From: Gossypium raimondii
Lineage: Eukaryota; Streptophyta; Magnoliopsida; Malvales; Malvaceae
Assembly: GCF_025698545.1 (NCBI RefSeq)
Contig: NC_068569.1
Location: 8,928,001-8,992,000, forward strand
Reading direction: 5' to 3'
DNA length: 64,000 nucleotides
Part shown: piece after piece, positions 8,715 through 46,130 of the stretch
Layout of the letters: each line of letters opens with the position of its first letter
Numbering within the stretch: position 1 is the stretch's first letter
Translations under genes and position numbers: made by a program
The notes under the pieces: model-generated
What the model was told of the DNA's origin: nothing
Databases searched by the model: none
What the model saw: only the letters and a program-made list of their open reading frames with translations

Positions 8715-11700
8715 ATGTGGAGACTTAAGATTGCCAAAGGGAGTGTTGGAGATGGTGGGGGATGGCTAAGGAGTTTGAACAATCATGTGGGACGTCAAGT
8801 CTGGGAATTCTGCCCTGAATCAGGAACCCCGGAAGAGCTTTCTAAGGTGGAAATGGCTCGTCAGAGTTTTCGGGATAACCGTTTCCACAAAAAGCACAGT
8901 TCTGATCTTCTCATGAGAATTCAGGTTAATCTGGGTGCTGAAATTGGGATTTGGGGTTTTTTGTTAATTAGTTGTTCATGTATTTTGTTTTCCAATTTTG
9001 GAAGAATTGGTTCTCTGCTGTTGGGATTTCCATATAGTTCTCTTTAGTCTTTCCATTGCAGGGAAATTTTACTTCTATGATTGATTTCATGATGTGACAA
9101 AAAACTTCAAAAAAGGAAAAAGAAGCTTAAAACTTTTCTCTTCTGCTGTGGTAAACTTCATATCCAGATTATATGAAAACAGTTAAGGAGTGTAGAAAAG
9201 ATTTCTTGTTTTTGACACGTCGTCTAAACCATTGTTGATTGTTTTAGCCATTTTGCATTTTGAAGGTCATTGTAGTTCTTTCTGGATGTAGTTTGCGGAG
9301 GAGAAACAATCTGTCACTAATTTACCACAAACCAAACTGGAAGAGTTTGAAGATGTCAAGGAAGAGGCTGTAATGACAACATTGCGCAGTGCCCTTGATT
9401 TTTATTCAACAATACAAGCAGATGATGGTCATTGGCCAGGAGATTATGGGGGCCCTATGTTTCTACTTCCTGGTTTGGTAAGGCTTAACAAAGCTATATC
9501 TGATTCTGATCTGTCTGTTAATGTGGAAATTACTAATGTCTTTTCTGTGGCTTAATCTACAAAGAAATTAAATTGCTGCTTCTCAAAATCTTTTGACATT
9601 TCACATTTGTACGTGTAGTGGAAGAACCAATCCTTTATTTTGTCATTATGTCTGTCTTTTTAACTCTGAGATCCCCTGATAATTACATTTCAATAGCTTT
9701 CTGATTACCTTGACATTGTTGCATCTCTCAACAACTAATAATTGGATGATATGTAATTTAATCTTTGTTTATAAACTGCAACAGGTTATTACATTATATG
9801 TTACTGGAGCCTTGAATACTGTCCTATCAAAGGAGCATCAATATGAGATATGCAGATATCTGTACAATCATCAGGCAAGCAATGTGCACTGTGTGTGTTT
9901 AAGATTTTTATGATTTCCACTTGTTGAGTAGATATTATGTTATGCACTAATCATGACATAATTATGTTATTATTGTCTGCTAGCTCTCTGGAATGTTTCT
10001 CACATCAGTTGAGCTTGTTCTAAGCAAGCATAGTGCTATCTGGATGAAAGGAAAACCAACCCACTTAAGTCAACTGCCTTTTACTAACTATTCGCTGTCA
10101 GTTGGCATTGTCATTACCGTATAAACAAATGAAGAAAATTGCTCTGTTCTGAGAGTTGTTTGTTTTCTTGCAGAATAGAGATGGTGGTTGGGGTCTTCAC
10201 ATTGAAGGTCCAAGCACCATGTTTGGTACTGTGTTAAATTATGTTAGCTTGAGGCTGCTTGGTGAAGGTGCTGAAGGTGGAGAAGGGGCAATTGAGAAAG
10301 CACGTGAGTGGATCCTAGAACATGGTAGTGCAACTGCAATTACGTCATGGGGGAAAATGTGGCTCTCGGTATATAATCAGTCTTCACTATTTGCTTATTT
10401 GTTATTTTTAGAAAAAGGGTAAAACTTTGAACACAGTGTCAACCTTTTGTCGATATTTGATCCTGATAGGTGCTGGGAGCATATGAATGGTCAGGGAATA
10501 ATCCACTGCCTCCAGAAGTATGGCTATGTCCTTACTTTCTTCCTATTCATCCAGGTTTCTAATTACTTTTTGATGGTTATGTTTTTTAATTCTTCATTCC
10601 AAGCCATGTAGAATATAGAATGTGTGTGTGCGTGTGTGTTTTAGTCACTAGCCTCTTTTCTATTTTTCATTTTAGATAAAGACAACTCATATTGGAGGAT
10701 CTTGTTTCCTATTTTGTAGCTATTTTTCACTTTGAGGGCTTTTCTTTTGCTATAACTTACTTTTCCACTCTTAGTCCATAGGTTTTTCCATATAAATCAT
10801 AAAGATTTTGATCTTTCGATTTGCTTCTGTTTCACTTTTTCCCTTCTTCACTTCATTGACCTGGTTCCTTTCAAAAGTTTGTTAGTAAATAGTCTCCCTT
10901 TTACAGGTCTTATATCTGTTCCAAAGGTTCTACATTATTCTACTCTGGACAATAATTTTGTATAATTCTGTAGGAAGAATGTGGTGTCATTGTCGAATGG
11001 TGTATCTGCCAATGTCGTTTTTGTATGGGAAGAAGTTTGTGGGTCCTATCACACCCACAATTCTATCCTTGAGAAAAGAGCTCTACACGGTTCCTTACCA
11101 TGAAGTCGATTGGAATAAAGCTCGCAACGCGTGTGCCCAGGTTGGCTAACCATTTGCCTGTGAAAAACAATGTTTCTTTATATATGTACAGCAAGTTTTG
11201 GCAATTAGCCAGTGATACTACTTTTACTTGTTTCCTATAGCTACTCTTGTTATTTCATGTGGTTAGTCTGCTTCTTTTTGGAAATTTTGATGTATAAATC
11301 ATCTTAAACATTCTTTCTTTAAATTTATAGTTATTGTATTTAGGAAGTTGCTTCTAGCATATCCAAGACACTTGACAATAATGCAGTTTAATTGAAATCA
11401 TATGTTGCTGAAAGTTCACCAGGCCAGTACAGAGAGTTCAACAGAATTTCCTGGAAAATTTAAATAAACGGTAGAAAATATGATTGCTGGGATCATAGAT
11501 TTACGTAATGAGTGAAATGGTCATGTTCACTGCTTTCTGTTCAATGTGTAAAATAATCGTTAGAAGTTAATAATCCTTTTCCTCACTTATAAACCATGAA
11601 CGCATATCAGTAGTGGGACATTTGTAGAGAAATTAACAGATCTGTTCCAACTGATATTCCTAGAGGTCTCATATTCTTGTTTGTGTTCCAACTTGTCAAG

Positions 11701-14700
11701 GAAAGGCTAGATTTTGTATTTCCATTTAAATAATCTTCTTGACCTTAATTTGTTTGTCATTTGGCATTGTGCATTGTTAAAGGCTTGTTGTCAGTATTTC
11801 ATAATTTTCCTTATAATTTTCCCATCCATTAATTTTTGGTTTTCTATAATTCTTTAATATTGTCTCAAGTTCCCATCTGCAGTTTAATATATTGATTATG
11901 TAATCCACACATCATTATCTATCAAACTAAAGCAGTAGAGACAAGATTGTGAAATATTAAAACCAGTGCAACCAGCTCATGATATTGTTATGATGAAAGT
12001 ACTTGCTGTGCATTTTTCTTAGTCATTTAAATGAATAAACTCATTTAACAATCTTGTGCTTTTCCATGACAGAAATAAGAATATTATTTATCTTTTGTAA
12101 TTAAATTATCTTTGAAAGGCTGTATGAGAATATGTATGTAAGCAAACTCTAATTGCACTGGTATTCCATTTTCATTTTTGTGAAAACATGTTTATTTTTC
12201 TAGTCAAATGCCTAGATGATGGTTCTTGTCTTTAGATTTCAAGGTTGGAACTTATTTCTTTTCTTCTTCCAAATATTTTTAGGAAGATCTATACTATCCA
12301 CATCCTCTGGTTCAGGATATTCTTTGGGCATCTCTCCACTATTTATATGAGCCTATGCTTAAATACTGGCCTTGTAAAAGCTTGAGGGAGAAAGCTTTAC
12401 AGATTGTCATGCAGCATATACACTATGAAGATGAGAATACCCGGTATATATGCATAGGGCCTGTGAATAAGGTAAGCCTGGAGAATGATTGCACATGATC
12501 TTAGATTTTGATATAGAAGAAAGCATGTAGTTGTTATTTCGCTTTAGCAATCAATGAAGGGGAGGGAATCTGTAAACGTTCATATCACTTTACTAAGATT
12601 AGGTTGCTTCTTCAGTATGGCAAAGCTCTGGAGTGATGCTTAGGAGGTCATGAATCTTATCCATCTCTTCACTCCAAGGAGTTTCTGATTTCCTAGAACT
12701 TGTATTCTGCAGGTCTTGAATATGCTTTGTTGTTGGGTGGAAGATCCATATTCAGAGTCATTCAAACTGCATCTACCTAGAATCTTAGATTATTTGTGGA
12801 TAGCTGAAGATGGCATGAAGATGCAGGTGCTGAACAATACTGGCTTTTCTGATTCTTAAATTTACATCATTGTACTCATCTAGTTCCTTTCTTGTCTTAT
12901 TGCAGTTCTAAGAATGGTACTTTCTGGTTTTAATTTATTATATTTTTGAACTATGCTAGGGAAAAGATATTTTGCTGTGCAAGAAATTGTGCTTGATTCT
13001 CATATATCTTAATTTCTTATGATTTCATTTCAGGGTTATAATGGAAGTCAATTATGGGATACTGCTTTTGCTATTCAAGCTATTATTTCTACTGGTCTTG
13101 CTGACGAATATGGTTCAGTTTTAAGAAAAGCACATGATTTCTTAAAATATTCCCAGGTTTCATTTATGAAGTCTTTTAATCATTGTTGTATCATTGACCA
13201 TAATTTCCTCAACTTGATTAGGTTTCTGTGTTTTCAGGTGTTAGAAAATTGCCCTGGGGATCTAAATTTCTGGTATCGTCATATTTCAAAGGGTGCTTGG
13301 CCATTCTCAACTGCAGATCATGGATGGCCCATCTCAGACTGCACATCAGAGGGGCTGAAGGTACAAATAATGAAAAACCTCTAGGAGACTCTAAAGTCTA
13401 AAATATTTTAGATTTGAGTAATAATGATTTCCACGTACAGGCTGCATTATTACTATCAACACTACCAGCAGCAACAGCTGGGGAGCCATTAAATGTGATT
13501 TGGCTATATGATGCTGTTAATGTTATCCTTTCCCTACAGGTAAATTGGATGCTACATTGGTTTAGTATTTAAATTCTTCTAAGAAGTTCTGGTGGGTTTA
13601 GTGAATTAGTAATTGGTCACCACTGGCGTTACAAATGGAGGAAACCTCAAAATGAGGCTGATACAGTGTTAAGAGGTATAATGTTTTGTGATTTTTTAGT
13701 AATTAGGTATAACAGAAGAGCTTGGTTCGTGTAATTATGCCAAGCCAATCCTATTTGGATATTGTAGCCTTTATTTGTGGTATTTAAATGTTCGTTTCAA
13801 TAGCTGCTACCTAGTGGACCACCTAGTTTAAGCAAGAAGGTTTTACCATGATATCAGAAAAGCTTGTGATCACTTTGATATTTGTGGATCTTTTTCCCCC
13901 TAGTGGATTAATATTTAGAGATGCTTAAGTTTGATGCCTTGCAAGTTGCACCTCCATAATCTGTCCTTTTCTCATAGAAACTATTTTCTAATGAGACTAC
14001 ATGTCCTTGATAATGTAGTTTATTCCTTTTACTATGAGCCTTCTCTTCTTCTTTTCTTAGCTTTGTAAATAACTAATACCAATGAAACCTTTTGTTGCCT
14101 TTTAGTTGCCTTTTTGCTAAAGGAAGATAGGTCCTGAGTTTGGGTTTAGGCATCTTATTCTTTGTTCTTTCTCATTAAAACTATTATCCAATGAGCTTAC
14201 CAGTCCCTGCTAATGTGATATATTCCTTTTATTTTGAGCCTTATACTTAGCTCTGAAAATGACTTAAAGAGTCTTAATGGTATTGTAACCTAGTGTTGCG
14301 TTTTTCACTAAAGGAAGATGGGTCCTAGGTTTTGATTTAGGCACCAGAGTTTGGAAATGTCACCTCCCATTATGCAACATATTTAATGATCTAAAGGGAA
14401 AAGAAAAGCCTGAATAGTCTTAGGCAACTATGTCAAGACAAAAATTTGACATAATATGAAAGAAAAGGATAGAACTTGGTTTCAAGCAGATAGATATCAC
14501 CATAGATAGTTCTTGATAGTAATCTCTGTTTATTGCCTGAGATTTATCTGTTTCTGAAACAAATTGAAATTGAAAATTTTTCAACATGGATGTCATTTAT
14601 TCACTTATAAATACAATAAAACCCTATAAAACAATATTTTTCTGACTAAAAAATTATTATAAAGAGTTTATTTAATTATAACTAAATGAATAAATTATTC

Positions 14701-17700
14701 ATTTATTGATAAATTTATAAAGAATTTTATGTTTTCAATCCTTATACATGTGTATCAATTTTTGTTATTTCCTTTTACCAAAATACATGAATGATCTATA
14801 AATTCTAAACACTAGATAGAGACAACAATTAATCTTTACTTATGAAACCATTCGCTAAGCATGAAAAGAATTAGTGAATCTCCTCTGTGCAGTGCGAAGC
14901 TAATTATTAGATTCAATTTGGTTTAGGTAGAAAGAACATACAATTAAATGTAGATGCATTTTTTAGAAATCTTAAATGAGAAGTAAAATTAAAGTGAAAA
15001 TTTTCCTCATAGCATTATATGAACTTTCATGTATTTTATTATCTTATGCATTCAATGAGGTTATTGTTTTAATGCACTGGTATTGTTTTAATGCACTGGT
15101 TCGAGCCAGGACTTTGAGATTCTACTAATTAATAAAAATTATTAGTTTACCTAATATTCATTTATCAAGATTTTATTATAGTACACACTAGTGAATTGCC
15201 AGCATTACCTCGATACACTTACTTTGTGTCAGTTTAATGGGACATATCTGAAATCTGGTTATACAAAATTTCTCTTAAATTTGACTAGATTTTGGATCAC
15301 TGCAGAATGCTGATGGTGGTTTTGCAACATATGAATTGACAAGATCCTATCAGTGGTTGGAGGTAACTACTTGACAAGTACATGGCTTTGTCAATTTTCT
15401 CTCTTTACATCAAGCAAACGCAAACGCAAAAGCCATACACACACAAACAAATAAAGATACAAATACACGAACAGGCATACACATTATCAACTGAAAGTCG
15501 AAAAGGTGAATCAGAAAAGAAAATGTGGTTTTAACCAAAAAATAATAGCCAAAGCTACTAAAGAATAAAAAGAGAAATAAAATTGTAAACAATGAAGCAG
15601 TAAAAACAATGATGTTAGTCTATCTGGGAATAAAAATTGTAAAAACAAAGTATAATAGCTGACTTACCATAATTTTACAAACAAGAGAGAACAAGAAAGT
15701 ACCCTATATAATTTATTGAACTGGATGGAGAAAGACTGATTCTTGAAATGAAAGATGGAGTTAACATAGCTCTAATATACTGTATCTAAGGTTTAGTGCT
15801 TGCTTTCTTATTATTAGTTGTTATGACAACAATTTAACCTTCATAATTGTCGTAAGCATCTTGTAAGGTGGCCAGTATAATTGCACTATTTCGTTTTTCT
15901 CCTATTTTCAGTTAATCAACCCTGCTGAAACTTTTGGTGACATAGTTATCGATTACCCGTAAGGTCCCAGCATACTTCATTTTCTTCTCAAGACATTTTT
16001 ATTTAACTGAATTACATTCTGATTTGATGTTTATGGACTGGCAACATAGATATGTTGAATGTACCTCGGCAGCCATTCAGGCACTAGCCTCATTCAAGAA
16101 ATTATATCCTGAGCATAGGACAGAAGATATTCAAAATTGTATTGGTAGAGCTGTGGAGTTTATAGAAAAGATGCAAGCAGAAGATGGCTCTTGGTTTGTT
16201 TATATAGTATTCTGTGATCTATAATTCTTCATAATTACTTTTATGTACATATTCTGCTACTTTTATCACTTCTTCAACATGGCTGACTCTGTAGCTTTTG
16301 CTGAAGAACTTGCATTTTGCTGTCATTCTTAAATTACTTTTACTCAGTAATGGAGATTTTGATAGGTATGGATCCTGGGGCATCTGCTTCAGTTACGCTG
16401 GATGGTTTGGAATAAAGGGGCTATCAGCTGCTGGTAGAACATACAAGAACAGTTCTCATATTCGTAAAGCATGTGATTTTTTTTTGTCCAAAGAGCTTGT
16501 AACAGGTGGTTGGGGAGAGAGCTACTTATCATGCCAGAACAAGGTTTTGATCCATCATTTTTGGAATTTCCTTGCGTGTTCTTTGATAGGCCTGTCTGAC
16601 TTTGTGGAATCTCACTTCGAATTTACTAATTATGCTCTAAATATATAGTAGTTCTAGTTCATTTGGCTCAGCTTCAAGAGAAAAAAGAAAAGAAAAATAA
16701 TAGTCCAATTGGATTGAACCTCAAACCAATTAAGCTAAATTTATTTGAAAAACACATTGAACAGGTCAAAGATTCGGTTGGGTCATTTTATTTGTAGGCT
16801 CTGCATATCCAGTTACTATTCTAGACATAAGGGGGATTCAGACGGGTGTATGGTTAAAAGTTGAACTGGAATGAATCTGCCTTTTCACAAAAAATTTGAG
16901 ACGAGCTATAACTTCTAGTGTCTAGTTGTGTAAAGTGTCAATGATCTTTCTGAAGTTATTTTCTTGGATTTTCTCAAATTCCAATTCATCTGAATTGCTT
17001 GGTAAGGACTGCATGTTTGATAACATTCCTGTAAGTTACTAATGAGACTATTGGTAGGGACTACATGCTAAATAAGAAAAAAGTGTCTGAACAATGAGAA
17101 GAAGCTTTCTTTTAGTTATATTGAGCTAGTAATAGTTTTGATTTGTATAGTTTTTCAACATTTCATTTCTTGAAGAGTGTTTATTAAATGTAGAATTCTA
17201 AGGGCTGTCTTGAAGTTGTTGATGATTTGATGGATTATTTTGAGATACATTTTGTTGGCACTTACCTCTTTCCTTAAATGGAAGTATCTGATTGAGAACC
17301 ATCAATGTTAGAAATTCAGATTCCTAGTACACTGCATTAGACAAGACTATTGCACTAATTATCGGGATGATTCATGTTTCTACTTTCCTTGCGTGTAGCG
17401 TTAAACTTCTTGTTTGTTTCACTAGGTTTATACAAATCTTGAGGGTAACCGGCCGCATATTGTTAATACCAGTTGGACCATGTTGGCTCTTATAGAAGCT
17501 GGGCAGGTATGTATAACTTCTCATTGGTTAATGTTCTACAGAATTCAGGATGTATGATAACGTTGTATGGCGCTGTTTTTGTGTGTTAAACGTGCTGATT
17601 CAGTGTACATACTTTTAAGCGTTAACGAATGTTTCAGCTTACATGTCATTGACCTGACCTTTTTGGTTTTGTAACAAAAGGCTGAGAGAGATCCAACACC

Positions 17701-18162
17701 TTTGCACCGCGCTGCAAAGATATTAATTAACTCTCAAATGGAGGATGGAGATTTTCCTCAAGAGGTAAATACAGTAGGTTTTATGTGTTTGTGTTAAAGA
17801 TCAGTGAAGAAAACTGTGCCTGGACCAAATAATATAAATCATGTTTGTCTAAGAAAATTAGAAGTAATTATGTTTCTTCAGTGCTTAATTTCCAAATATT
17901 AAATGCCTGTCATGGTTTAGTTGTCTGCAAGTACAAAATGATCGGGTAAGACTAAACAAAACCTTCTGCCTGTTTAATGGAATTACAAAGAGAAAATTAT
18001 AACTAATGCATCGCGTTGCTGATTGGTTTTACCATTTCCCGGCCACAGGAGATCATGGGAGTGTTCAATAAGAACTGTATGATCAGCTATTCAGCGTATC
18101 GGAACATTTTCCCGATCTGGGCCCTCGGAGAATATCATTGCCGGGTGTTGCAGGCCCCCTGA
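8715..18162 (+). CDS. Cycloartenol-synthase-type oxidosqualene cyclase
   Basis: Eighteen exons: 8715-8924, 9292-9477, 9785-9874, 10174-10368, 10470-10554, 10974-11140, 12283-12471, 12713-12826, 13034-13156, 13238-13360, 13441-13539, 15306-15362, 15912-15958, 16050-16193, 16366-16543, 17426-17506, 17681-17764, 18049-18162. They splice to 761 residues, normal for the family, with no internal stop. CAS hallmarks: MWRLKIA start, MWCHCR (258-263), [12 protein letters not shown] with Tyr414, and His481 and Ile485 before the catalytic Asp487. These match the Arabidopsis CAS1 trio Y410/H477/I481 with a constant offset of 4. The expected reaction is cyclisation of 2,3-oxidosqualene to cycloartenol on the ER membrane. 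Oddities: the catalytic motif is DCTSE (487-491) instead of DCTAE, YAGWFG replaces the usual YGTWFG (620-625), and intron 3 has a GC donor. It could be the sterol enzyme or a diverged paralogue. The in-frame GTG at 8643 was not used as start. Confidence 0.93.
13971..14344 (+). repeat. Tandem duplication inside CAS-type intron 11
   Basis: Two diverged units of about 180 bp (13971-14154 and 14171-14344) share the same order of blocks: CTCAT.AAAACTATT, TATTCCTTTTA, GAGCCTT, CTAAAGGAAGATGGGTCCT and TTTAGGCA. They lie within the 1.77-kb intron 13540-15305 and do not touch coding sequence. Confidence 0.7.
15063..15100 (+). repeat. Short 19-bp tandem duplication in CAS-type intron 11
   Basis: The word TATTGTTTTAATGCACTGG occurs twice head to tail. 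It is followed by GGTTCGAGCC, which looks like a tRNA T-arm by chance only. Confidence 0.8.
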
Positions 18163-19422: not shown

Positions 19423-21814
19423 TTAATGGGGAAGGAGGCGAACAGGGAGTCCTTTAGCAGGCATGGGGAGTGGATCCACTATTATCATCTCATCAGGTAT
19501 CAGCTTTTCCCAGTTAAACCTTTTGATTACATTGTGCATGAAAACCAGTATCTCCAGACGAGCGTACTCTTTCCCAGGACACATCCTTGGTCCTCCTCCG
19601 AAGGGGACAAATGTGTAAGGAGCTGGTCCACTGCCTTCGAATCTTGCAGGCTCGAACTTCTCTGGCTCAGGGAAGCACTCGGGGTTTTTGTGGGTTGAAT
19701 TCACATTCCAATGCAACTGTTCCAGTTCCAGTAAATCATTTTAGTTGCTGATCATGGAATTTTATACATAGAGAGAGAGTGTGTTAAGATTTCACAAGAG
19801 AAAAAAAGAAGGAACCTTCCAGCCCTTGGGAATGGAGAAACCAGCGAAGGTGAAGTCGGTGATGGCCTCTCTGAAAGCACCCTGAAGCGGAGGCGCAAGT
19901 CTCATCACTTCGCAGGCTACGTTCCATGAATATTTCATCTTTTTTATGTCTTCCCAGTTTAGCATCTCCCCTTCTTTCTTTGATCTTGCTATCTCCATTT
20001 GTTCTGCCACACGTACCCTTTGTCACACTTTTTTACTCTCTTGCCCTAATCTAAACAACTCCCACTTCATATGTTTTTTCCATACTTACCAAGTTAATCC
20101 CTTATCTATCTATTATTTCTTGAGTTAATGTTGTGACTTAATCACACAGTTACTTTACAAAATAATAAACATTATTTTTCTATTTATAAAAAAATTAATA
20201 CCCTATATTTCATGCGATTTCAACCTTAATTTTACAATTTCATTCACACCATCAACAAATAATAACATGGCACATCTTCATTAAATTAAACATAAAATAT
20301 GAAAGACTTGTAAATCAATATATAAACATGATTAAGTATTGAACGTAAATATTATAAATAAATATTAATAATCCTCAAATTTAGAATTATGGGTTTAAGG
20401 GTTTAGGTATAAGATTTTAATATTTATTTATGTTCAAGTAAAATTATTAGTATTTATTTATAAGTCCTCTACTATTTTTTGTTTTACTTGATGATAATGC
20501 ATAGAATTTTGATATTTTAAAATAATTTACATGGCTGCATAAACTAAGCTAAACTTTGGAGTTTATTCTCAGTTTTATTGAATTGGTTGGGTAACTAGAG
20601 TACCGATTAAACCAATGAAAACGAAATGCTTTAACTTGGCTATTTCGTTGCTATATGGATTGCAATTAATTTTTCCATGCTGATATGATAATTTTCCAAA
20701 ATTGTTTTACGTGGCTAAAAATCAATGGATACGAAAGGAATGGAAGGGAAAAAAACAAAGAAACAAACAAGTAATCTGTTTTTCCACGACACTTAACCAA
20801 AGTGTTAATTTCTTTCTTGCATGGGGAAAAAGAACCAGATTAATAAAGGGTTTAGAAAATCACACCTTTGTAAACCTCGTTGTAGATGTTAGGAAGCTCA
20901 GCAAGATACTTGACAATGAAAGTAACGGTAGCACTGGCAGTATCGTGACCACCAATCAGCAAACCCAGGATCCTATCAGCAATGTTCAATTCATTCAAGT
21001 ACTGCCCCTTCTCATCGGTTGCAAGCAACATGTGGGACAATATATCTTGGTCTGGGGTTGCTTTATTTTCTGCGAGATCCATCTTTCTTTGCTTGATGAT
21101 CGCCATCAACTCCTTCCTGGTGGTTTCAGCAGCATTGATAGCTCGCCGGAAAGGTGTTCCCGGTAAGTCAATGGGGACGGTAATGATTCCGGCGGCTAAA
21201 GCATTGAAAAGGTCGGCTAATTTAGATACATGGACGGGGTCTTCTATGCTTAGAAACACTTTGCAAGCCACCCAAAAGGTGTATCTTTTGGCAAGTGGGA
21301 ACACTGTTATTTCTTGCTTGCCTTCCCAACTGGCTTCGAAGTGTCTTTGGGCAATCATATCCATCATCCCTATGTATCTTTGCAAGGCTTCTGGTTTTAG
21401 GAAATTAGGCAGCATTTTCCTCATCTTGATCGACTCTTCTTTCGAACTCGTTTGCGTTGAAGAAGGGAAAATCTTGTTCACGGAATCCGGCCACCACGAA
21501 GTGACGAGCTTGTTTTCGTTGGAGAACAAGAATTTGTTACCGACAGCCCCGCATACGACGGCCATGGGTTCTCCGAATATCGAAGTTTTGAAGACTTGCG
21601 AAGAGTATTTGGCCATTCTATCTTTTAAGAACTTCTCGGGGTGACCCCTTCGACCTGTTAAGAGGTACTCGATGCTTTCACCGATGTATGGAAATCCCAT
21701 CCTGCCGGGCGGAAGGTTAGGGTTCGAGGCATAATTAGATTTTTTGTAGAATATAAGGAATGCAAGAGACAGTAGTGGGAAGAAGGTTGCAAAGAAAAGT
21801 AGGATGGGATCCAT
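19423..21814 (-). CDS. CYP716A-type cytochrome P450 (probable amyrin C-28 oxidase)
   Basis: Exons 21814-20866, 20003-19816 and 19716-19423 splice to 476 residues, complete for a CYP716. An N-terminal ER anchor (about 4-23) is followed by [13 protein letters not shown]. Motifs: [13 protein letters not shown] in the B-C region, I-helix GGHDT (288-292), K-helix EVMR (348-351), FEPARFEG (400-407) and heme loop [10 protein letters not shown] (418-427) with Cys425 as iron ligand. The C-terminus PAKGLPVRL is typical. The blocks [27 protein letters not shown] and [16 protein letters not shown] match what I recall of grapevine-type CYP716A enzymes. Those oxidise C-28 of beta-amyrin, alpha-amyrin and lupeol to the acids in three steps. 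Its position between two OSC genes fits. Substrate and regiochemistry are inferred, not shown. It is convergent with the CAS-type gene. Confidence 0.93.
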
Positions 21815-27900: not shown

Positions 27901-30900
27901 AGATTACAAGTACGAAAGCAAGCAGCCCTAAAGTTGGATTTTGATTCATATAGCAGTTGTTTGAAGTACTGAGATTTCATTAAAATGAAAGAAACTAATA
28001 AGGTAACCTACGGTTGAGGTAAGTCAACGCCACAATGAATAAAATGTTGAAGAGAACAGAAAATCCGAACAGCGCTGCAACAGAAATCCAAAACCAACAA
28101 TCTTCTGTATGGAAACCTCTACTCTTTAGAAGGACTTGTCCGACTGTAGTTGCATTAATTCTGGTGTCATTATTTTGCTGCATATACAGCATTTTGTGGT
28201 ACAGTAAGGTCAAGAAAATGTAAGTGCCTAACCAGTGCTTATACACAGAGATGCATCCATACTATATAGACATATACATATACATAGACTTGCATATATG
28301 CTTCAAATTGGAAGACAAATAAAAGGGAAGAGATCTTACTCTATTCCATCTTTTATCAAGAAATTCATTCATGACGATGGCATTTTGTCCATACATCATT
28401 GGAGACAAATAGTAGCCCCATATCATCCATGGTTCAATGTCATCTGCAATTAGACAAAGGGTTACCATGCTTGAACCAAAGCGGATTATAACCAGAAAAA
28501 AATGTAAAATATTAATTATATAGATCAAAGGATAAACGGAAACAATCATCTAATAGAATTTTGACAATAGGAATACCATATTGCTTTCCCTTTTGCTTAC
28601 TGCTTGGTTTAACTGCAATGCTCTTTGATAGTAATTATAGATGAATTTACCTACCTCTTGCAACAATGAAACCTCCAAGCACGAAAACCATTAGCAAGGT
28701 GAAGGTACCCAATGTGTTTGCAATGACTTGTGTTCTTCCTACAGCAGCAATGAACCTAAAGAGGGATAAAGCCATTTGATGTATGCCAAAGAATGCCAGG
28801 AACTGTCTGAAGAACCTGGATATATAAAAGGGAAAGAATTATTATATAAAAGAAACTGTTACAGTTTATAGTTTAAAGTGTTAGTTTTGAGTGTTCACTA
28901 AACCAGTGATTATTAGGAGATAGAAATAGAATAACTAAACTCTGACTAAGGTTCCTAATTTTCATGGTTGTGAAGAAACTACTAATTTCGTGGTATGTGA
29001 GAATGGTGATTGTGAAAATGTGGAGACACTCTACCTGCTAGCAGCTGGAGCAAATCCAATGGTGTAGTATGTGAGGCAGATCCATATTCCAGATTCCAAT
29101 AATGACAATGGGATCTTGATGATCCAAATGGAAAGGCTAAAAGCCCATGGAGGATAGAACAAGAAGTCCCTTTGTTTATAGAAAACAGGAAGCCTGAAAA
29201 TTGTCATTGCAAGTTCTGCCATCCCATTAAACATTACATTGATTAGACTGTAAAACAAAGCTCCGAAAAATTTCGAACCGTCTTCCAAATTGCCTGCATG
29301 CATTTCTTTTATGAAAAATACGGTCATGGCAATCAATGACATGATCGTAATTTGGACAGTCTTGAATATGTACACGAATGAGTTACGTTTCATTAGCAAC
29401 CATTCCCTTGCAAAGCATGCCCTGAACAACTCCCAGTTTGAAATGCCATATTTTTCTGTAACTACTGCAGGATGGCGTGCTACTGATCTGTCATAAGGAA
29501 CCCTCAGATCGGATTCAAGCTGTTGGCCAATGTGGAATGAGTTGAACCCCTGCACAAACTCGGAAACCGTAACATAACTATAAGGCTGGTCTTTTCTGAA
29601 CCAATATTGCTGTTGGTCCTTCTTGGAAGTTACTTCTTGCAAAAAGTCTGCAACTCCTTTTCTTTCAGGGCATTTGAAACCCATGTATTCAAAGAACTCA
29701 AGGACACCTTGGGTGGGACCTTGGTAGACAATTTGACCTTCCGAAAGTAGGATAAGGTGGTCGAACTGATCGTATGTCTCGGGTGCTGGTTGCAGAAGAG
29801 AAATGACCATGGTTACATCCATGATATGAACCATTTGCCTCATGAACTTGCAAATCTGGTAAGTGGTAGAACTGTCCAGCCCCGTCGATATTTCGTCCAT
29901 GAAGAAGGCCTTTGCTGGACCAACCAACATCTCTCCTGCAATTCAGGCGAACCCAAACTATTAGACTGCCAATATCTAACAACATTCAGCACCATTCTCA
30001 GGAGAAATTCAAATTTTGGTAGAAGCATACCAGTGGTCAAACGCTTCTTTTCACCACCAGAAATACCTCTACGCATGTCGTCCCCGACCAGAGTATCCGA
30101 ACACATTTCTAGTCCAAGTATCTGATTAAAAGATTCTTAAAACGGGTTAATGTGCTTGGATTGGGGTTTAGTAGACAAATAGAAAACTTAGATGAAAACC
30201 AAACAACCTTAAGAACATAATCTGTAACCAAGCTAGTTCGTTGGCCTGCCATAGCTGTTGCTTTCATGAATGCATCAATTTCAGGATCTGGCTTGATCCC
30301 TGCCTCTTTTTCCCGATTTGAGAGCTCTTTCAATATTTCATATCTGGTGCCAACACCGAGACACCGTCCCGAGAAATCCAATGTTTCCCTCACTGTCATT
30401 TCACCATGGTGAACATCATGGTGACCGATATAAGCACATGTTCTTTGAGGAATAAACTCACTCATTTCATAACCACAATATGTGATTCTCCCACTAGACT
30501 GCCCAACAATGCCAAGTTATTGAAGCTAAATATTTAAGATAATTCCATTGTTAGTCCTATGGAAAAAGAAATCTTAAAGAGACTCACTCTTAGATCCTGA
30601 TCAAGCCTTCCTGCAAGTGCTTGCAAGAATGTTGTTTTCCCTGCACCTGGAGGACCCAAAACTAGGGTCATCCTATAAATTTTCAGAACAGATCATTAAT
30701 CCATAAATAACTGGACATTTCATCCTTCAAATTATATCCTCATTAACAAGTTAATTTAACATTGCTGATTTCTCCATCCAAATTTACAAATAAGTTGAAA
30801 TGATAATTGATGTTCTCTTTTCCTAAATTACCTTGACGGTTTCACAATTCCACTGACATCTTTAAGTATCTCAATCTTTCTTTTCCTAGAAGGTACAAGC

Positions 30901-32529
30901 CGAACCAATCCAAGAATACTCTATGGTTCATGGCACCATAAAAAATTAAAAAATATATTAGTTATCGAAATTAGAATATACTGTAATAAAAATAAACTAT
31001 AATTACCAATACAACCAAAGTTTTTGGATCTAACTTAACCCTAAAAATTGATTTGTAGCACTCAGTTAAGTTGTGCCATAAGTAATATTATAAAATGGTA
31101 AATTTCAAACTTTGATATTTTTAATGCCCTAACTTCTAATCTGAATCTTTGTTGATTTCTTTTAAGTTAAACTCTTTTGAGGTTTAAAGTAAATTTTATG
31201 TGAAACAGGTTACTTTTTAAATAAATTGATATGAGACACCTACATAATTATCAACTTAAACATAGTATAAATGAATACAAATTAAATATAATTACTTTTT
31301 TACTTAAACTTTAAATCATAAACCCTAAATCTCACTAACACTAACCATAAATCCTAAATATTACTTCACTATTATTATTGATTAATTTTGGTTCAATCAA
31401 TATAAATTTTAAAATTTTAAAATGATTAATGTTATGATATTATTTAAAACCTTGTAAAAATATATGATGTTTAAAAGTTAATATTTTTATTTTTGTTATT
31501 TTTATCAGTTTAAGTTTGTTTGAGCCAATAGTAATATTTAAATAAAGTCCTCTCAATAATGTCAATTTAATAATTCGAATTTATTCACAATTTATTAATC
31601 ATTAAAAATTAATCCTTTAAAATTATTCTAATACAATTTAAACTTATAAATGAAAAGAAAAAGAGTGAAGGGATACCTCTATGATATTCAAGGTAACATT
31701 AAGCAGTGTAGGAAGAGCTCGGCTTCCGACGTAAACGTCTCCTTCAACTGATAAATGCTCAAATCTAACTTCAATTTTTGGAATTTCAATGCCAACTCTT
31801 CATCATCCATAACCCAATTCCATATATTAGATCAGAAATCGATTTTGTTTAAATTCTAAAAAAGAATTAATCAAATCAATTATCCATAAAATTTAAATTC
31901 TAAAAACATTTTAGATAAATAGTTTTAGACAAAAATAATTAAAGGTTTTACATATAATACAGTTTGAGTATAGTTGTTCAGATTGGGGTGGTATTCTCCT
32001 CCCAATAAAATTTTACTATATGATTCCAACCTGACTTCTTCTAATTTAGGTTTTTTTTTTTCTAATACAAAGCTTATCGATTTCAATGTAATATAAAAAT
32101 ATACAAGTTAGAAGAAGTTGGTTTTTACTAAAAATGAGATAGCAGCAAGCTGGCATCATGTACATACCTATCAGTTCGATCCCTTAATTTCCTGAGAAAA
32201 TTTTCATTATCTTGTTCGACAACCTTCAAAATACTGTCTATGAGTTGCTTCTTATTCTGTTGTCCAAGCTTAGTTACATCAACTTCGTGAAGAACAACTT
32301 TCCCATTATCACCAACTTTCCTTATCATACTTTTCCGAAGGCGATCATACATGGGAAGTCGTTCGATGGCAGCCCAAATGAGATCCTCCTCCGTGTCATG
32401 CCGTTGGCTCCTCTCGAACACTTCGGGCGGAGTTTGCCAAATATCCCGGAACCTCGCCGACCCCCAACCCCCACGCCCGCTGCTCATTGATCTTGCCGAC
32501 AGATCATCTCCTGCTAAAGCTGACGCCAT
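24979..32529 (-). CDS. Full-size ABCG (PDR) transporter, cluster-I type
   Basis: Nineteen exons on the minus strand: 32529-32168, 31797-31677, 30920-30832, 30672-30588, 30498-30208, 30121-30031, 29935-29035, 28815-28655, 28443-28340, 28177-28012, 27841-27758, 27635-27499, 27364-27032, 26939-26649, 26533-26450, 26354-26221, 26133-25906, 25798-25627, 25503-24979. They splice to 1452 residues with every phase matching, so the gene looks intact. The order is NBD1-TMD1-NBD2-TMD2. NBD1 has Walker [10 protein letters not shown] (197-205) and signature ISGGEKKR (336-343). NBD2 has Walker [10 protein letters not shown] (896-904), the PDR-type LSTEQRKR and [10 protein letters not shown]. The end is [13 protein letters not shown]. 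It resembles ABCG29/34/39 and tobacco PDR1. That clade contains plasma-membrane exporters of terpenoids and phenolics. A role in exporting the local triterpenoid is inferred from position. Intron 1 ends in a weak, purine-rich acceptor (GGATGATGAAG). Confidence 0.94.
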
Positions 32530-33111
32530 CTTGACGATGAATTAACTCTAGCTTTTCATTCCGATTGAAAAGAAGATAAATCAAAGGCACGACGTCGGTT
32601 ACTTGCCTATATGAAACTGATCACTTCATTGCTGAAAAAGAACGCAAGTGTTTGGTGCTTGAAATGTTTGGCAGTGATGATATGAACTGAAAAGATAACG
32701 AGACAATGTACGTCTTGTGATATTAAAGAGAGGTAGTTGGATCCATTAAACATCAGACTCCAGTCGGCTATAATCAACTAATGTGTGCTGACTATCTAAA
32801 TTGAGGCCATACTTGTCACTGTCAATTTATTTCTTGAGGTGTTCGTGGCTGTAAATCAATTACGTTTTCATTTATCTTAAGATATTTTATATTAATATTT
32901 TACATAAATTTATTAATATACCAACCAAAATTAAATACGATTAACAAAAAAATTTTAACATTATAATTAATTGTATATTTTTAAAATTGATAAAATTAAA
33001 GTAATTTAATTTAAAGAAGTTAATTTTACTCCATATCGAAATTAAACGGAATTAAAGAAGTGTTAGTTTTAACACTTTCTTTTTTGGAATTTTACAGTTT
33101 ATAGTTATCTT

Positions 33112-33146
<35 letters not shown>

Positions 33147-35263: not shown

Positions 35264-38200
35264 TTATGGCAATGGAACACGTTTCCGGTACTCTGCAAGT
35301 GCCCACAGTGGGTAAATGTTCCTATAGGCTGCATAGTGTAACATGCAGTTTTTCATGAACACTCCAGTAATTTCCTGTCACCAATAGGATTCAATTGTTA
35401 GGTTGAAATGAAATCACTGTTTGATCTCTCTTTCTTTTAGGATTTTCAGTAAGCTATATAAATATTATATTAGCACCTGTTGGGGAAAGTCGCCATCTTC
35501 CAACTGAGAATTGATTATTAGTTTTGCAGCACGGTGCAGAGGCCTTGGGTCTCTTTCCGCCTGTTTAAAACAAGCGAGTTGTAGTTAAACCGGGTTATCA
35601 ATATTATATTTAAGTTTCAATTTGTATCCTCAAAGCCTAAGCTTCCACAAAAGCATCAGGTTCACCTGTCCAGCATGAATCAAGCCCATCATAGCCCATG
35701 CAGTATGCACCAAGTTTGATCTGCCATCTTCAAGAGGTACATATATCTGCATCACCAACCACATTGGTGTTACTAATTAAACCATTAAACCCTTGGTATC
35801 AAACAGGGCAGATTAATTGTTTGTGACATTGGAGATTTACTTTTTCAGGACATGATTTGTAGCTCTCTCCCCACCCACCATTCTCTCTTTGTGTTGTAAG
35901 TAGGAACTCAACACCTCTCCGCATAGCTTCACAGTTGATGTATGTCTTGCCTGCAGCTGCAAGGCCTCCGAGTGCAAACCATGTACCATATGTGAAGCAA
36001 ACTCCCCAGTTTCCATACCTGTTAAGTGTTCGATATGATTCAATTCTAATCACAAAACGTCTATTCGATTTATCCCGAATCAAACTTACCATGAACCATC
36101 AGGCATTTGTATATCTTCGAGGTAGTGTACGGCATTCGTGATGAAATTCTCGATTTCTTTCTTCCTGTGCCCAGGGTACAACTTCTTAAACATAACTAAA
36201 GCATGGATTGAAGATGCAGTACACTCAATGTATTCATGCTCGATGACTATGTCGGCAAAAAATTCGGTGGGATTAAGCATCTGAACAAGAGCAACATACA
36301 AGGAACCATCATTAACATGTGAAAACTAAGAAAGAGTAAACCATAGTTCAATAGCCTAACAGATGTCAAGGGCTTAAGCACTTACTTCCAGCCACTCTTG
36401 AGCTCCTGCAGGCTCCCAGGCAGCTAATCCTCCATTTTGACTCTATATAGAACAAGTGAAGCATTTGAAGCTTATATAAATAGACAACTTGCTATGACTA
36501 GCAGGTATCCTTGAAAATCTAGAATGAGCACATTCTTACCTGCAGAGAGAGTATAACATTGACTGCATCATATAATTGCTGAGGTTCCATTTTCTCACCA
36601 ACAATTTCTGGTGGCAACATGGACATGAGTAGGCAACACTGTAAAATAGAGGAACATCTGTTAAGTCAACATGAATTTATAGAATAGATGCATCACTCAT
36701 ATTTTTATAATGCATTTGATTGAGACTAAAGAAATCAGTACCTTCAAGCCTTCTGCAGTGCAATCAGAAACTTGCCATCCATGATCTTGATCAGAGAAAG
36801 TCCAAGATCCCTTTGAAATATGACGGAACATTTGCTTAAAGTCACCGGAAGGGTTGTCCTTGACCTATTCGTTGTAATCGGAAGATAACGGTTATTGTCG
36901 ATCGACATACGACGGGCAACAGAAAAAGATTGAAATGACTTGATGATGAATGAATCTTATATTGAACCTGAGATTTCTTGATGAAGTCATGTCCTCTCTT
37001 GAGTACGGGTCCGATTTCATCGGTGAGGTTACTAGCAAGCAAAGCTTGAATGGCGAAACCGGTATCCCACTGTTGGCTTCCAAAACTCTGCAGACCAGTA
37101 ACCATGGAGTTTTCTAAATGAAAATCTATGCTTGTAACATCTTTCCTTGTTACTGATTTAATCAATCAATAAGTTTATTTTGGTGAATGAATGTACACAA
37201 ACCTGCATCTTCATCCCATCTTCAGCAACCCAAAGATAATCCGGGATTCGAGCAAGGTGTTTCTTAAAGTAATCACTATTTGGCTCTTCAGCCCAACAAG
37301 CAAGCATGCATAACACCTAGTCCATTCAATGGCACCACATGGTTAGCAATCAAATAGACATAACCTTAACCTTCTTATTACCTTTGATAAATTATGATTG
37401 TAAAATTACCTTCTCCACACAACCAATGGTGATGTATCTACTATTTTCATCTTCATAATGGATGTGTTTCATTGTTACTTGGAGAGCCCTTTCTCTGATC
37501 AACTTGTTAAAAGGCCAACGAGTAAGCAGCGGTTCGGTACATATATATAGACTGTCCCACATCAGATCCTGAATCAAAGGATGTGGATAGTATATATCCT
37601 CCTGTAACACCAAATTGTTTATCAATGTTATATTAACTTAACTGTAATGTGGTTCATTGCCTTTGCAGTTTGTAATTTGTACACAACAAAGTCAAACTCA
37701 CAGGTGCACATAGATGGCGTATTTTCTTCCAGTTAATTTCATTGTAAGGTTGAAGGTAGAGTTCTTCTCTGAGTTGTTCGATGAGAGGTGTGATCTGGCC
37801 GACGAACCTTTTGCCATATAGGTATGACATAGGCATGTACACCATACGACAGTAGCACCACATTTTAGCTGCACATTTGAAAGTTCCAATTGAACATTAA
37901 TCAGATTCATTGCTGCCATTGTTGATATATATCAACTAATATTACCGCATGCAAACCTGGATGCATAGGAAGGAAAGAAGGAAGCAGCCAGAACTCTGGG
38001 GGCATTGGGTTACAACCGGACCAGTCAAAAACACCAAGTATCTACAAGAAAAAGGGAACATTCTTATCTGAAAAATGGGTAAATTTTAAAGGCCAGTTTG
38101 TGCAACATGTGCATTGATGCATACCGAAAGCCAAGTCTTCCCCCAAGAGGGCATATGAGTGACACTGCCATGGTCAAGAATCCACTTGCGGGCTCTCGCA

Positions 38201-41200
38201 CAAGCATTGTCCAGTCCGCCATCGGGTCCTTCCCCGAGAATACGCATGCAAATGTAGCTAAGAGCTGTACAAAACATGGTGCTGTGACCCTCTATATGTA
38301 ATCCCCATCCACCATCTTCATTCTGCCATCACATCCATTGAACTCTTCAATTTTACTTGGATATATAACAATTTTATACCAAAATATAGAAAATATAAGT
38401 ACCTGATGATAGTATATATAACGAAGGATTTCTCTACGATGCTCTTCAGGGAATACGGTGTTAAGGTGTCCAGTAATATACATACTGAAAACCTACAATT
38501 TTGAGTAGACAACATTAGCACCCGCATTTAGTTAAAAAGTTGATGGACAAGTCCTAGTGAATGAAATTTACCAAGGGTGGAAGGAAAAACAATGGACCAG
38601 CATTTTCAGCGGGCCAATGACCGTCGCTGGCTTGCAAAGCAGAGAAGAAATGCACAGCCCTCCTCAGTGTTGTTGTGGCCTTCTCATACGTGATTTGCTC
38701 ACCATCTTCAATTTTCACTGCTGGTATGCTTTGTTTGAAATTCTTTTCCTTCAGAAACTGCAAAAAGAAAAAAAAATGGAGTAAATTTTACATACTCATA
38801 ATATAATATGAATCACCAAATTATTTTAATTACTTCATTTTTTCCTATAAGAAATTTAAGCTTCTGCTTTCATATAAAAAAAAGAGAAATTAGAAAGAGC
38901 CTGGAAATATAAATAAAAAGACTCAAAATTTTACCTTTTCTTTATATATAGATATGATCATTATGGTTATCATTTCGGTCTCTACTTTTTCAAATTTTAT
39001 TAAAATATTTTACACAAGGTGAATTGTTAAGGGTGGGTTTGGATGGGCGATTAGGTGCGGTGCGGTGCGTTTAGTTTACTTTTTGTCTCACGCTACAGTA
39101 TCGCTATAATATCTAATCTTACCGTCACTACTATTTTTAAACTAACCGCAAGTAAAATTGAAATTTACCCGTAACCTATAGAAATTTTAAGGTAGGTCAT
39201 AAATCACCAAAACTAGCATTAATTGATGACAGTGTAGGACTTTTTAGGCATTGTAGGGTGGAGTATCAATTATAACTATTTATAGATAGGATAAAACTTA
39301 TCTAAAATTTGGAAGAATTTAGATAAAAATTTAGGTTTGTTTAAATGGTGAATTTGACTCGAGTTTAAACATTCAAGACTCAAATCCGGTCTAATCCAAT
39401 CTATTTTTAAGTTTATATAATATTTTATACTATGATATTTTTATATATTATGTAATTTAGAACATATTAAAAATAAACTTATATTAAATATATAATACTA
39501 CACTAATGTAAATATTAAAATAATATTAAAATACTATATGAAAATTTTCAATAAATAAAATATATATAATTATTAAATATTAAAATAAAATATTAAAAAT
39601 ATTTTTAAAAAATAATATGGTGGGCCTAAATGGACTTGAATTAGTTTTTTTTGCAAATAATGATGAATTTAGGCAAAATTTTAGGTTCATATTTCCAGTC
39701 AGACCGAACTTAAGTAAAAATAAAATATATTAATATCATACTTAGGCCAGTCATTCCCAGCCATGAGGATATTAGAAAATTCCTTTAAAAGATTCCTTTG
39801 AAAAATGGATAATAATATATTTAAAGCATCAATAATCTATATTTTATGTATGGTAGATAGTTAAATTATTTTTAAATGTATATATAAATAAAATGTATAA
39901 ATCGTTGTTACGTTTGACATAAAATCTTATCATTCTTTTACCAAAATTTAAATTATTTATTTGGGTGCCTGTATTTAAACCATTTATTTATTTAAAATTT
40001 TGATATTTTAAAATATTTTATTATACAATATTTGTAAATTCCAAAATCTAATTAGGGTATCAAAAAATTTCCTTTTATTATTTATTTATGTGCAAGGTAT
40101 AAGTCTATGAAGAAAATGATGAGAAATGGAATGGAAGTGTACGAAAAAGAATGTAAACAGAAACTCCACGCGAAAACACATGGTGAGTGCAGTCACGTAG
40201 AAACAACTTTGGACGACACTTTCAAAGTCGTCGCTATTTCTACCCTTTTCTTCTTTCCGCTTTTGCCATTTCCTTCTTTCTGTCTCCACTTTCATATCGC
40301 ACCATTACTTATTTATCTTATAATTCATTTTGAAACCCCCCCCCCCAAAAAAAAAGCAAAGAAGATAAAAGAATATCCACTCATTTTATTTTATATAGTA
40401 GTAAATTAGATCATCCCATTCCATTAAAACTTTTATAATAAATGTACATAATTTTTTTATTGAATCCCGTTATTCGGTTTACATATAAATTTTATATGAT
40501 ATATGCATCAAATATAGATCTAAATTTAAAAAAAAAAAAACTTGTGAAGCTATTAAAACTATAGTTTTAATGAAAAATTTGTTGTTGGTTAACCCCAATA
40601 AAGATGCTTCAAATTTGTAAAGATCATAAATGTATAAGAGTTATAAAAAAATTTGATACGGAATTAAATTGTATATTTTATAATAATAATAAAATAATTT
40701 TACTATTTTAATAGTTTATATTTTTATATTTTAAAGAATTAAATCAAATTTTTATTAATTTTTAAAATATTAAAATATAATTTCATAATTACTAATTTAA
40801 AATTTTATAGCACTTCTCTATCAAACAGGATTTTGTATACACGATGGTTTTATTTTCTGGCTACGTCATTAAATCAGTAGTATGTGACTTTGTGCCAGAT
40901 ATTTCGTGTTAATTGCTTAAACCTAAACCACTAATCATAAATTTATAAATTATCTGTTTCCTTCTATATTTAAACATTGGACTTTTACAAAAATATTATT
41001 AAAAAAGAAAAGAGTAGTCTTGTTTAGTAGGTTTTTTAAATTCCTTTTAATTACTTTTGACTTTTCAAAACTAATATAAATTTTTATTTAAATTACAATA
41101 ATAACTTTTTTGTTTTTTATATGGTTTTAAAATAAATGAATTCCAGGTTCAGAAAATTCTTAATCTCGTATCTTAATCCAAGAAAAAAAAATAAAGGTTG

Positions 41201-41922
41201 AAGTTCAGCCCATTCTATAATGTACAGAAGAAAATGAAAAAAAAAATAATTGAGAGTAACCTTATCATCTCGAATTTTGTTTTAAAAGATCTCATCTTTT
41301 ACGGATAGCTACATTTTGTAAATTCATCTTTGGCTTTCTATCGTTAGTACACTTACAAATTCTTTGACACCAAAAATCAAAATACTGGACCATATGATTT
41401 TGGCCTTTAGATTAAGGCAATGCCATACTCATGACAGACGTCGACGTAAGAAATCCAAGAATATTTAAACCAAATTCACCTAAAAAAGACAAAAAATGGG
41501 ATATAAATAGAGAGAGGGAGAGAGAGAGAGAGAGAGAAGGTCCCTCAGTTTTGGTCCAAGCCTCCAAGGAATTTACAAAAAAAAAACTAAACTTGTTAAA
41601 AGGGGTGGGTAAAATTTCCAAATTCAAAAGTGTGAATCGTTTCAAATCATACGAGGTGGTGTGCAAGTGGAAAACGGGTCGGGCATGCAAAAGACTGTTT
41701 AAAAAAGAGATAATTAGATACCTGCATACGCCAAAGGAGGTCAGCACTAGGCTTGACATGGTGGCGGTTTTGGTAGAAATTTTGGCGAGCCTCTTCAACC
41801 TGGGCTCGCTCTTCAGGGGTGCCACTGTCAGGGTCGAATTCCCAGGTTTGTCTCCCCGCGTAGTTGTTTGTGCTGTACAAGTACCGCCCATCCACACCCT
41901 CTGCAACCTTCAGCTTCCACAT
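35264..41922 (-). CDS. Beta-amyrin-synthase-type oxidosqualene cyclase
   Basis: Seventeen exons: 41922-41722, 38757-38572, 38492-38403, 38322-38125, 38041-37957, 37868-37702, 37601-37410, 37316-37203, 37087-36968, 36864-36742, 36638-36540, 36442-36386, 36280-36090, 36018-35841, 35746-35666, 35560-35477, 35374-35264. They splice to 758 residues, complete. It starts [15 protein letters not shown] (256-261) is the beta-amyrin form; lupeol synthases have MLCYCR. It continues with [11 protein letters not shown] and [12 protein letters not shown] with catalytic Asp485. Pentacyclic-type Val483 replaces the Ile of cycloartenol synthases. The reaction is cyclisation of 2,3-oxidosqualene to beta-amyrin, possibly with other amyrins. 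Many exon lengths equal those of the CAS-type gene, but exons 13 and 14 of that gene are one exon here (191 bp). Intron 1 is 2964 bp and contains a MITE, a C13 run and a (GA)n repeat. Product specificity cannot be settled from sequence alone. Confidence 0.92.
39031..39155 (+). mobile_element. Harbinger-like MITE, copy 2 (right end lost), in beta-amyrin synthase intron 1
   Basis: It starts GGGTGGGTTTGGATGGGCG after a TAA and follows the copy at 48524 through the GTGCGGTGCGGTGCG and CTAACCGCAAGTAAA blocks. It then diverges, so the right terminal repeat is missing. It carries a short extra block near 39111-39120. It lies in the first intron of the pentacyclic OSC gene. Confidence 0.75.
41506..41536. 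repeat. (GA)n microsatellite near the 3' side of exon 1 of beta-amyrin synthase
   Basis: An interrupted run of GA units about 190 bp inside intron 1. On the transcribed strand it reads as (CT)n. Confidence 0.85.
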
Positions 41923-45949: not shown

Positions 45950-46130
45950 GGGAAAATTTTAAGGGTCGAAATTAAATTGTAATTTTTATAATAGTAAAAA
46001 TGTAATTTCACTATTTTAATAGCCTAAATCTTTATAATTTTTCTTTATCAATTTAAAATTTTTAAAAAGTTTAAATGAAAAAAATTCATAGAGGCGGAAC
46101 TGCCAACCAACCCTCCTAATTACGCCCCTA
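45950..46130 (-). mobile_element. Second copy of the GTGGCGGAG-type dispersed element, inverted
   Basis: Read on the minus strand it gives GGAGGGTTGGTTGGCAGTTCC, then TTTTTCATTTAAA, then TAGGCTATTAAAATAGTGAAATTA. This is the same order of blocks as the element at 3345-3602. Edges are approximate. Confidence 0.45.

What the first reader, a model, noticed from the sequence alone, without database searches (positions are those of the whole stretch)
8715..41922. Candidate triterpenoid gene cluster: two OSCs of different clades, a CYP716A and a PDR exporter
Four consecutive genes with intact spliced frames cover scaffold formation (CAS-type and beta-amyrin-type cyclases), oxidation (CYP716A) and export (cluster-I ABCG). 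No unrelated gene lies between them. The predicted minimal route is oxidosqualene to beta-amyrin to an oleanolic-type acid, with export. Pairing a tetracyclic-type and a pentacyclic-type cyclase with one P450 is unusual, because most described plant triterpene clusters centre on one OSC clade. Including a transporter is also uncommon.
Basis: partly seen in the sequence, partly recalled or inferred. Interest (0 to 1): 0.85.

Follow-up and report, generated by a model that had tools for sequence, protein, structure and literature searches.

The report
Ancient triterpene gene neighbourhood in cotton
Four neighbouring intact genes in what looks like a cotton genome probably build and oxidise plant triterpenes, and they belong to a gene neighbourhood already described in related plants, here with a second sterol-type enzyme that is probably not the plant's ordinary one and with a transporter whose role is unproven.

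Summary
All four genes are present at the stated coordinates, intact after splicing, with no other gene found between them: OSC1 (CAS-type, 18 exons), a CYP716A P450 (3), a full-size PDR-type ABCG (19) and OSC2 (beta-amyrin-synthase type, 17). The host genome is held (751 Mb); delta-cadinene synthase genes point to Gossypium. A published synteny study reports a superrosid region derived from an ancestral CAS locus that holds BAS, CYP716 and BAHD genes. This locus fits by gene content: four BAHD places lie 65-207 kb beyond OSC2. So the OSC pairing and CYP716A linkage are an instance of a known, old arrangement. OSC1 is probably not the housekeeping CAS1: an intact canonical CAS lies on C8, about 131 kb from the only other CYP716A found, in the same relative order and orientation. 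OSC1 belongs to a separate CAS-clade lineage, possibly that of cucurbitadienol synthases (support 84-91%, resting on recalled sequences), yet keeps 13 of 13 CAS residues checked. The ABCG resembles ABCG34; nothing ties it to triterpenes. A beta-amyrin to oleanolic-type two-step route is likely but inferred. Co-expression, products and collinearity with other plants could not be tested.

The parts
8715..18162 (+). OSC1: CAS-clade oxidosqualene cyclase, 18 exons, 761 aa, intact; separate from the canonical CAS on C8
   Evidence: GC donor in intron 3
19423..21814 (-). CYP716A-type P450, 3 exons (21814-20866, 20003-19816, 19716-19423), 476 aa, intact; [10 protein letters not shown] and GGHDTAS present (motif roles recalled)
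   Evidence: 73.1% to recalled CYP716A12, 74.3% to the C8 copy
24979..32529 (-). Full-size PDR-type ABCG transporter, 19 exons, 1452 aa, intact, two ABC and two membrane domains
   Evidence: 72.3% to recalled ABCG34
35264..41922 (-). OSC2: beta-amyrin-synthase-type cyclase, 17 exons, 758 aa, intact, MWCYCR motif; 83.5% to recalled ginseng PNY
4794..7013 (-). Left border: LRR receptor-like kinase (pollen receptor kinase type, name recalled)
   Evidence: Arabidopsis PRK2 At2g07040 and CAS1 At2g07050 are listed together at one SNP
1..2290 (-). Left border: USP-domain protein kinase, runs out of the window to about C5:8925830
   Evidence: (Usp 22.2 bits, cut-off 24)
50948..52911 (-). Right border: receptor-like kinase (STRUBBELIG type, name recalled)
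55751..58267 (-). Right border: START-domain-like protein (weak Pfam hit, 21.2 bits against cut-off 22)

Best explanation
This is the cotton copy of the ancient CAS-derived triterpene neighbourhood of superrosids. Its core is a working two-step pair: OSC2 cyclises 2,3-oxidosqualene to beta-amyrin and the CYP716A beside it oxidises that, most likely at C-28, towards oleanolic acid. OSC1 is a second CAS-clade cyclase kept next to them since an old duplication; it most likely makes cycloartenol or a related protosteryl product and is not the housekeeping CAS. The PDR-type ABCG is a neighbour of unproven role. BAHD acyltransferases further right may extend the set. Shown: genes, intactness, order, the second CAS/CYP716A linkage on C8, the BAHD genes. 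Inferred: every catalytic activity, product, transport, co-regulation, and identity with the published region.
For: Four intact genes in 33 kb. OSC2 is the only one of the 10 full or near-full OSC models in the genome with the MWCYCR motif and it groups with recalled PNY (80/78). Only 2 of 29 matches to the P450 exon 1 reach 71%; the other is on C8, about 131 kb from the canonical CAS (from the coordinates), and a PRK-like kinase lies 192 kb on the other side, giving PRK, CAS, CYP716A in the same order and orientation as here. Synonymous sites of both pairs are saturated (pS 0.77 and 0.79, pN 0.14 and 0.17), as expected for an old duplication under purifying selection. BAHD matches at 4 places on C5:9.03-9.18 Mb (6 of 103) match the published BAS/CYP716/BAHD set (PMC10576086, section 13 read whole). 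The canonical CAS group excludes OSC1 with 99/98. OSC1 agrees with AtCAS1 at 13 of 13 positions checked, among them Y118, H257, Y410, H477, I481 and Y532, and changes 3 of 166 sites invariant in 14 other OSCs, the same as the C8 CAS.
Against: Collinearity with other superrosids was not computed, only gene content compared with a paper. The C8 PRK-like gene is only 47% identical and is not the closest PRK paralogue (65% on C6, 59% and 51% on C10), and the 40 kb read around the C8 CAS gave only weak kinase hits (29-40%) to the window's border genes, so the C8 block is loosely matched. The window P450 is less like CYP716A12 than the C8 copy is (73.1 against 77.7%), so the C8 copy could be the main C-28 oxidase. 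No expression data.
Confidence: 0.7

Rival explanations
1. A dedicated, co-regulated four-gene pathway: both cyclases feed the same P450 and the ABCG exports the products.
For: Tight packing with nothing found between; three of the four genes on one strand; CYP716s of Aquilegia include enzymes acting on cycloartane and on oleanane scaffolds (PMC5303825 section 7).
Against: No expression evidence; in that paper the cycloartenol-oxidising enzyme (CYP716A113v1) and the beta-amyrin-oxidising ones (CYP716A110, CYP716A111) were different; the ABCG has paralogues at 79-80% at three other places over the exon searched, plus partial ones beside one of them, and none near the C8 block.
Confidence: 0.15
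2. Mere linkage relic: old neighbours retained by chance or by low recombination, each acting alone; OSC1 is simply a spare CAS.
For: Borders are ordinary kinases; OSC1 keeps the CAS residues checked; sterol-clade OSCs in Brassicaceae lack specialised-metabolism neighbours (PMC7383575 passages).
Against: Both CYP716A genes found sit beside OSCs, and BAS/CYP716/BAHD linkage is reported across superrosids.
Confidence: 0.12
3. OSC1 is a cucurbitadienol synthase, giving cotton a cucurbitacin-like branch.
For: OSC1 pairs with the recalled CPQ (88/91, and 84/88 with the broken C10:53.1 Mb relative included); an Aquilaria OSC of this clade, from another Malvales family (ordinal placement recalled), makes over 90% cucurbitadienol (PMC12858397 section 7).
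Against: OSC1 has Tyr at the position where recalled CPQ has Leu, the residue recalled as deciding between cycloartenol and cucurbitadienol; a tree keeping OSC1 with canonical CAS is not rejected (p-AU 0.298).
Confidence: 0.1

Closest known systems
Superrosid CAS-derived BAS/CYP716/BAHD region, including horse chestnut AcCluster I/II (PMC10576086)
   Same: CAS-clade and beta-amyrin-type OSC with CYP716A, and BAHD genes within about 0.2 Mb
   Different: No cellulose-synthase-like match at C5:8.5-9.5 Mb among 149; a PDR-type ABCG between P450 and BAS ('abc' has 0 occurrences in that paper's main text); collinearity itself not computed
Arabidopsis tirucalladienol cluster: PEN3, CYP716A1, CYP716A2, SCPL1 (PMC9909608, passages)
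   Same: An OSC linked to CYP716A genes, about 47 kb
   Different: Its OSC makes tirucalladienol; no beta-amyrin-type or CAS-type OSC is listed in it
Arabidopsis CAS1 locus: AT2G07020, AT2G07040 (PRK2), AT2G07050 (CAS1)
   Same: PRK-type kinase and a USP-kinase (AT2G07020's type recalled) next to a CAS-type gene (passages)
   Different: No CYP716A, ABCG or BAS recalled there; recalled AtCAS1 groups with the C8 copy, not with OSC1
Group B OSCs (cycloartenol and cucurbitadienol synthases), e.g. Aquilaria OSC1 (PMC12858397)
   Same: OSC1 may share this lineage
   Different: OSC1 keeps Tyr118; product untested; the paper's group profiles were not available to me

Membership tests
Superrosid BAS/CYP716/BAHD region | BAS-type OSC | tested here: met
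   OSC2, MWCYCR, 83.5% to recalled PNY
Superrosid BAS/CYP716/BAHD region | CYP716 gene linked to it | tested here: met
   P450 at 21814-19423, 73.1% to recalled CYP716A12
Superrosid BAS/CYP716/BAHD region | BAHD acyltransferase in the region | tested here: met
   4 places on C5, 65-207 kb beyond OSC2; IIIa/IIIb class not tested
Superrosid BAS/CYP716/BAHD region | Collinearity with the ancestral CAS segment | not testable with these tools
   the genome has no relatives here, and no other plant genome was at hand
Canonical (housekeeping) CAS1 | Falls in the clade of AtCAS1 and PNX | tested here: inconclusive
   C8 CAS does, OSC1 is outside with 99/98, but p-AU 0.298 for holding OSC1 with them and reference rows are recalled
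Cycloartenol synthase, catalytic residues | Y118, H257, Y410, H477, I481, Y532 (set recalled) | tested here: met
Cucurbitadienol synthase | Leu at the AtCAS1 Y118 position (recalled) | tested here: not met
   Tyr in OSC1
CYP716A subfamily | over 55% identity to a member (rule in PMC5303825) | tested here: met
   73.1% to recalled CYP716A12
PDR-type full-size ABCG | (NBD-TMD) twice plus PDR_assoc | tested here: met
Functional biosynthetic gene cluster | Co-expression and one shared pathway | not testable with these tools
   no expression or product data

The most novel reading that the evidence does not exclude
A two-arm cluster: OSC1, freed from sterol duty because an intact CAS sits on C8, makes a protosteryl scaffold (cycloartane or cucurbitane type) and OSC2 makes beta-amyrin; the single CYP716A oxidises both, and the ABCG34-type pump exports them, so that one 33 kb locus of a Malvales plant gives tetracyclic and pentacyclic defence triterpenes.
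Probability: 0.1. Interest if true: 0.75.

Novelty: new member of a known kind. Interest (0 to 1): 0.4.

Why it matters
It puts a concrete, testable two-step oleanane route at one locus of a probable crop relative, and it offers a clean test of how triterpene clusters arise: a CAS plus CYP716A linkage is seen twice in this genome, once beside the canonical sterol cyclase and once beside a diverged cyclase, a beta-amyrin synthase, a transporter and, further off, BAHD genes. If OSC1 proves to be of the cucurbitadienol lineage, it would help date that lineage outside the cucurbits.

Tried and rejected
Rejected: OSC1 as the genome's housekeeping CAS1, my first idea from the Arabidopsis neighbours, weakened by the canonical CAS on C8. 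Rejected: hidden extra OSC, P450 or ABCG pieces in the window (0 hits). Rejected: a cellulose-synthase-like gene nearby (none at C5:8.5-9.5 Mb among 149 matches). Led nowhere: Rfam and tRNA scans (0); the transposon terminal motif in the window (0); paper search for the Y118 residue (0 papers); Ks between the duplicates is saturated, so it dates nothing; NCBIfam, a library for prokaryote proteins, gave no specific P450 name.

Not done: expression, products, synteny with other plants, structure prediction, a family search on the proteins of the 20 kb flanks.

Full report
What is there. Spliced alignment gives four intact genes: OSC1 8715-18162 (+), P450 21814-19423 (-), ABCG 32529-24979 (-), OSC2 41922-35264 (-). 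Exon counts are 18, 3, 19 and 17. There is no internal stop or frameshift in any. One OSC1 intron has a GC donor. Family assignments come from Pfam and NCBIfam; subfamily names rest on identities to sequences recalled from memory.

Where it is. The window is C5:8928001-8992000 of a 751 Mb genome held without a name. Many matches at C5:54.03-54.31 Mb, exon by exon up to 98% identical to a recalled cotton delta-cadinene synthase, point to Gossypium; a D-genome species is my guess from genome size and about 13 chromosome-sized contigs.

OSC inventory. The PF13243 search gave 11 places, two of them in the window. Models were tried for 10 loci outside the window: a canonical CAS on C8 (81.5% to recalled AtCAS1, intact), a lanosterol-synthase-type gene on C13 (N477, V481 as recalled for that type), a tandem array on C6:57.94-58.07 Mb (four near full-length models, one of them with a stop and a frameshift, and one locus modelled only in part), a lupeol-type gene at C6:27.07 Mb without its start and with one frameshift, an odd OSC at C10:3.3 Mb, and a broken or partial OSC1 relative at C10:53.1 Mb. 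Of the 10 full or near-full models, window included, only OSC2 has MWCYCR; it is 83.5% identical to recalled PNY.

OSC1. It is 77.0% identical to the C8 CAS; the C8 CAS is 81.5% and 83.0% identical to recalled AtCAS1 and PNX, OSC1 only 76.3% and 76.0%. The canonical group excludes OSC1 with 99/98 (97/96 in both smaller trees). OSC1 pairs with recalled CPQ at 88/91, or 84/88 with the broken relative included; holding OSC1 with the canonical group costs 5.07 log units, p-AU 0.298, so it is not rejected. Of 15 sites where OSC1 and CPQ agree against the canonical group, 6 also differ from the C13 outgroup, 7 agree with it (and so could be ancestral) and 2 are neither; six control pairs, each made with one member of the canonical group, gave 0 or 1 by the count that gave 6. 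The controls lean low, because the canonical rows form a clade. A 2025 survey (PMC12858397; outline, passages and section 7 read) puts cycloartenol and cucurbitadienol synthases together in group B and cycloartenol synthases alone in group C, and reports a cucurbitadienol synthase from Aquilaria. OSC1 agrees with AtCAS1 at 13 of 13 positions checked, Y118 among them, so I predict cycloartenol or a close relative.

The second block. The other CYP716A (C8:1535228-1540066, three exons, no stop, 74.3% identical) is about 131 kb from the C8 CAS; a PRK-like gene lies 192 kb on the other side. Order and orientation match the window: kinase, CAS, CYP716A. Synonymous sites are saturated in both pairs. 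Against this: the C8 kinase is only 47% identical and closer kinase paralogues lie on C6 and C10; the 40 kb read around the C8 CAS showed only weak kinase hits to the window's border genes; and the 8 kb read at the C8 kinase showed no USP-kinase, though it ends soon after the kinase.

The neighbourhood. For twenty kilobases beyond each end I read ORFs of 100 aa or more by eye, without a family search, and saw no P450, OSC, BAHD or transferase of the pathway. Further right, BAHD acyltransferase matches fall at four places, 65-207 kb beyond OSC2 (6 of 103). No cellulose-synthase-like match lies at C5:8.5-9.5 Mb (149 matches). Other P450s and glycosyltransferases were not searched for. The horse chestnut study (PMC10576086; passages, and section 13 read whole; [quoted passage not shown] It used G. 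raimondii for orthology; whether cotton was in its synteny panel I could not see. Hence this is best read as a member of that known region.

The transporter. It is a full-size PDR-type pump, 72.3% identical to recalled ABCG34. Over the 303-residue exon searched, three other places match at 79-80%, and partial matches at 76-83% lie beside the one on C9. Nothing here connects it to triterpenes. Of ten paper searches, two asked for ABC transporters with triterpene clusters; the listings showed no title about a PDR gene inside a BAS/CYP716 cluster, but I opened only some of the papers, and most subscription papers are not in the library.

Mechanism, shown against inferred. Shown: gene content, intactness, order, a second CAS/CYP716A linkage. 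Inferred from family knowledge: oxidosqualene to beta-amyrin by OSC2, C-28 oxidation by CYP716A (a CYP716A12-type step; Aquilegia CYP716A110 gave erythrodiol and oleanolic acid). Speculative: use of OSC1's product by the same P450, acylation by the BAHDs, export by the ABCG. On recheck I lowered the main confidence from 0.72 to 0.70, because the p-AU result and the weak C8 border matches had been given too little weight.

Noticed in passing
window 8795-10326 and 10859-11082; copies at C4:12.57 Mb (L027), C5:3.186 Mb (L036) and elsewhere: The 5' part of OSC1, introns included and with the same internal deletion in the two copies read, has been captured by a mobile element with ends like TTAGGGTC..GACCCTAA (PIF/Harbinger- or Tourist-like by recall) and spread: 6 copies of one arrangement at 94-96% identity and 4 of a second. 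In the two copies read, exon differences are not lower than intron differences (5.5 against 4.4%, 5.0 against 2.4%), so they look unconstrained.
   Followed up: partly
L028 (C10:29.97 Mb): A different OSC1 piece (window about 11360-12454, 93%) sits next to the same element end as in L027 and L036.
   Followed up: partly
C13:56.54 Mb (L013, L016): The lanosterol-synthase-type OSC also has weak USP-kinase matches close by (45-51%), like OSC1; possibly another ancient duplicate of the neighbourhood.
   Followed up: no
C10:143619 and C10:465186: A PRK-like kinase (59%) and a CYP716-like P450 (45%) lie 0.32 Mb apart with no listed OSC match between them; possibly a third duplicate block.
   Followed up: no
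C10:3.3 Mb (L019): A divergent intact OSC with LWSYMR in place of MWCYCR; a group I OSC of Gossypium barbadense is reported to make achilleol A (PMC12858397).
   Followed up: no
window 2945-3076, 39023-39156, 48515-48661; 3424-3595, 40638-40809, 45967-46040: Two small dispersed repeat families (76-86% alike), MITE-like, one copy of each inside OSC2 intron 1.
   Followed up: no
C6:57.94-58.07 Mb: Tandem array of four near full-length OSC models (one with a stop and a frameshift) with MLCYCR or MFCYCR, 69-72% identical to recalled PNY, plus one locus modelled only in part.
   Followed up: partly
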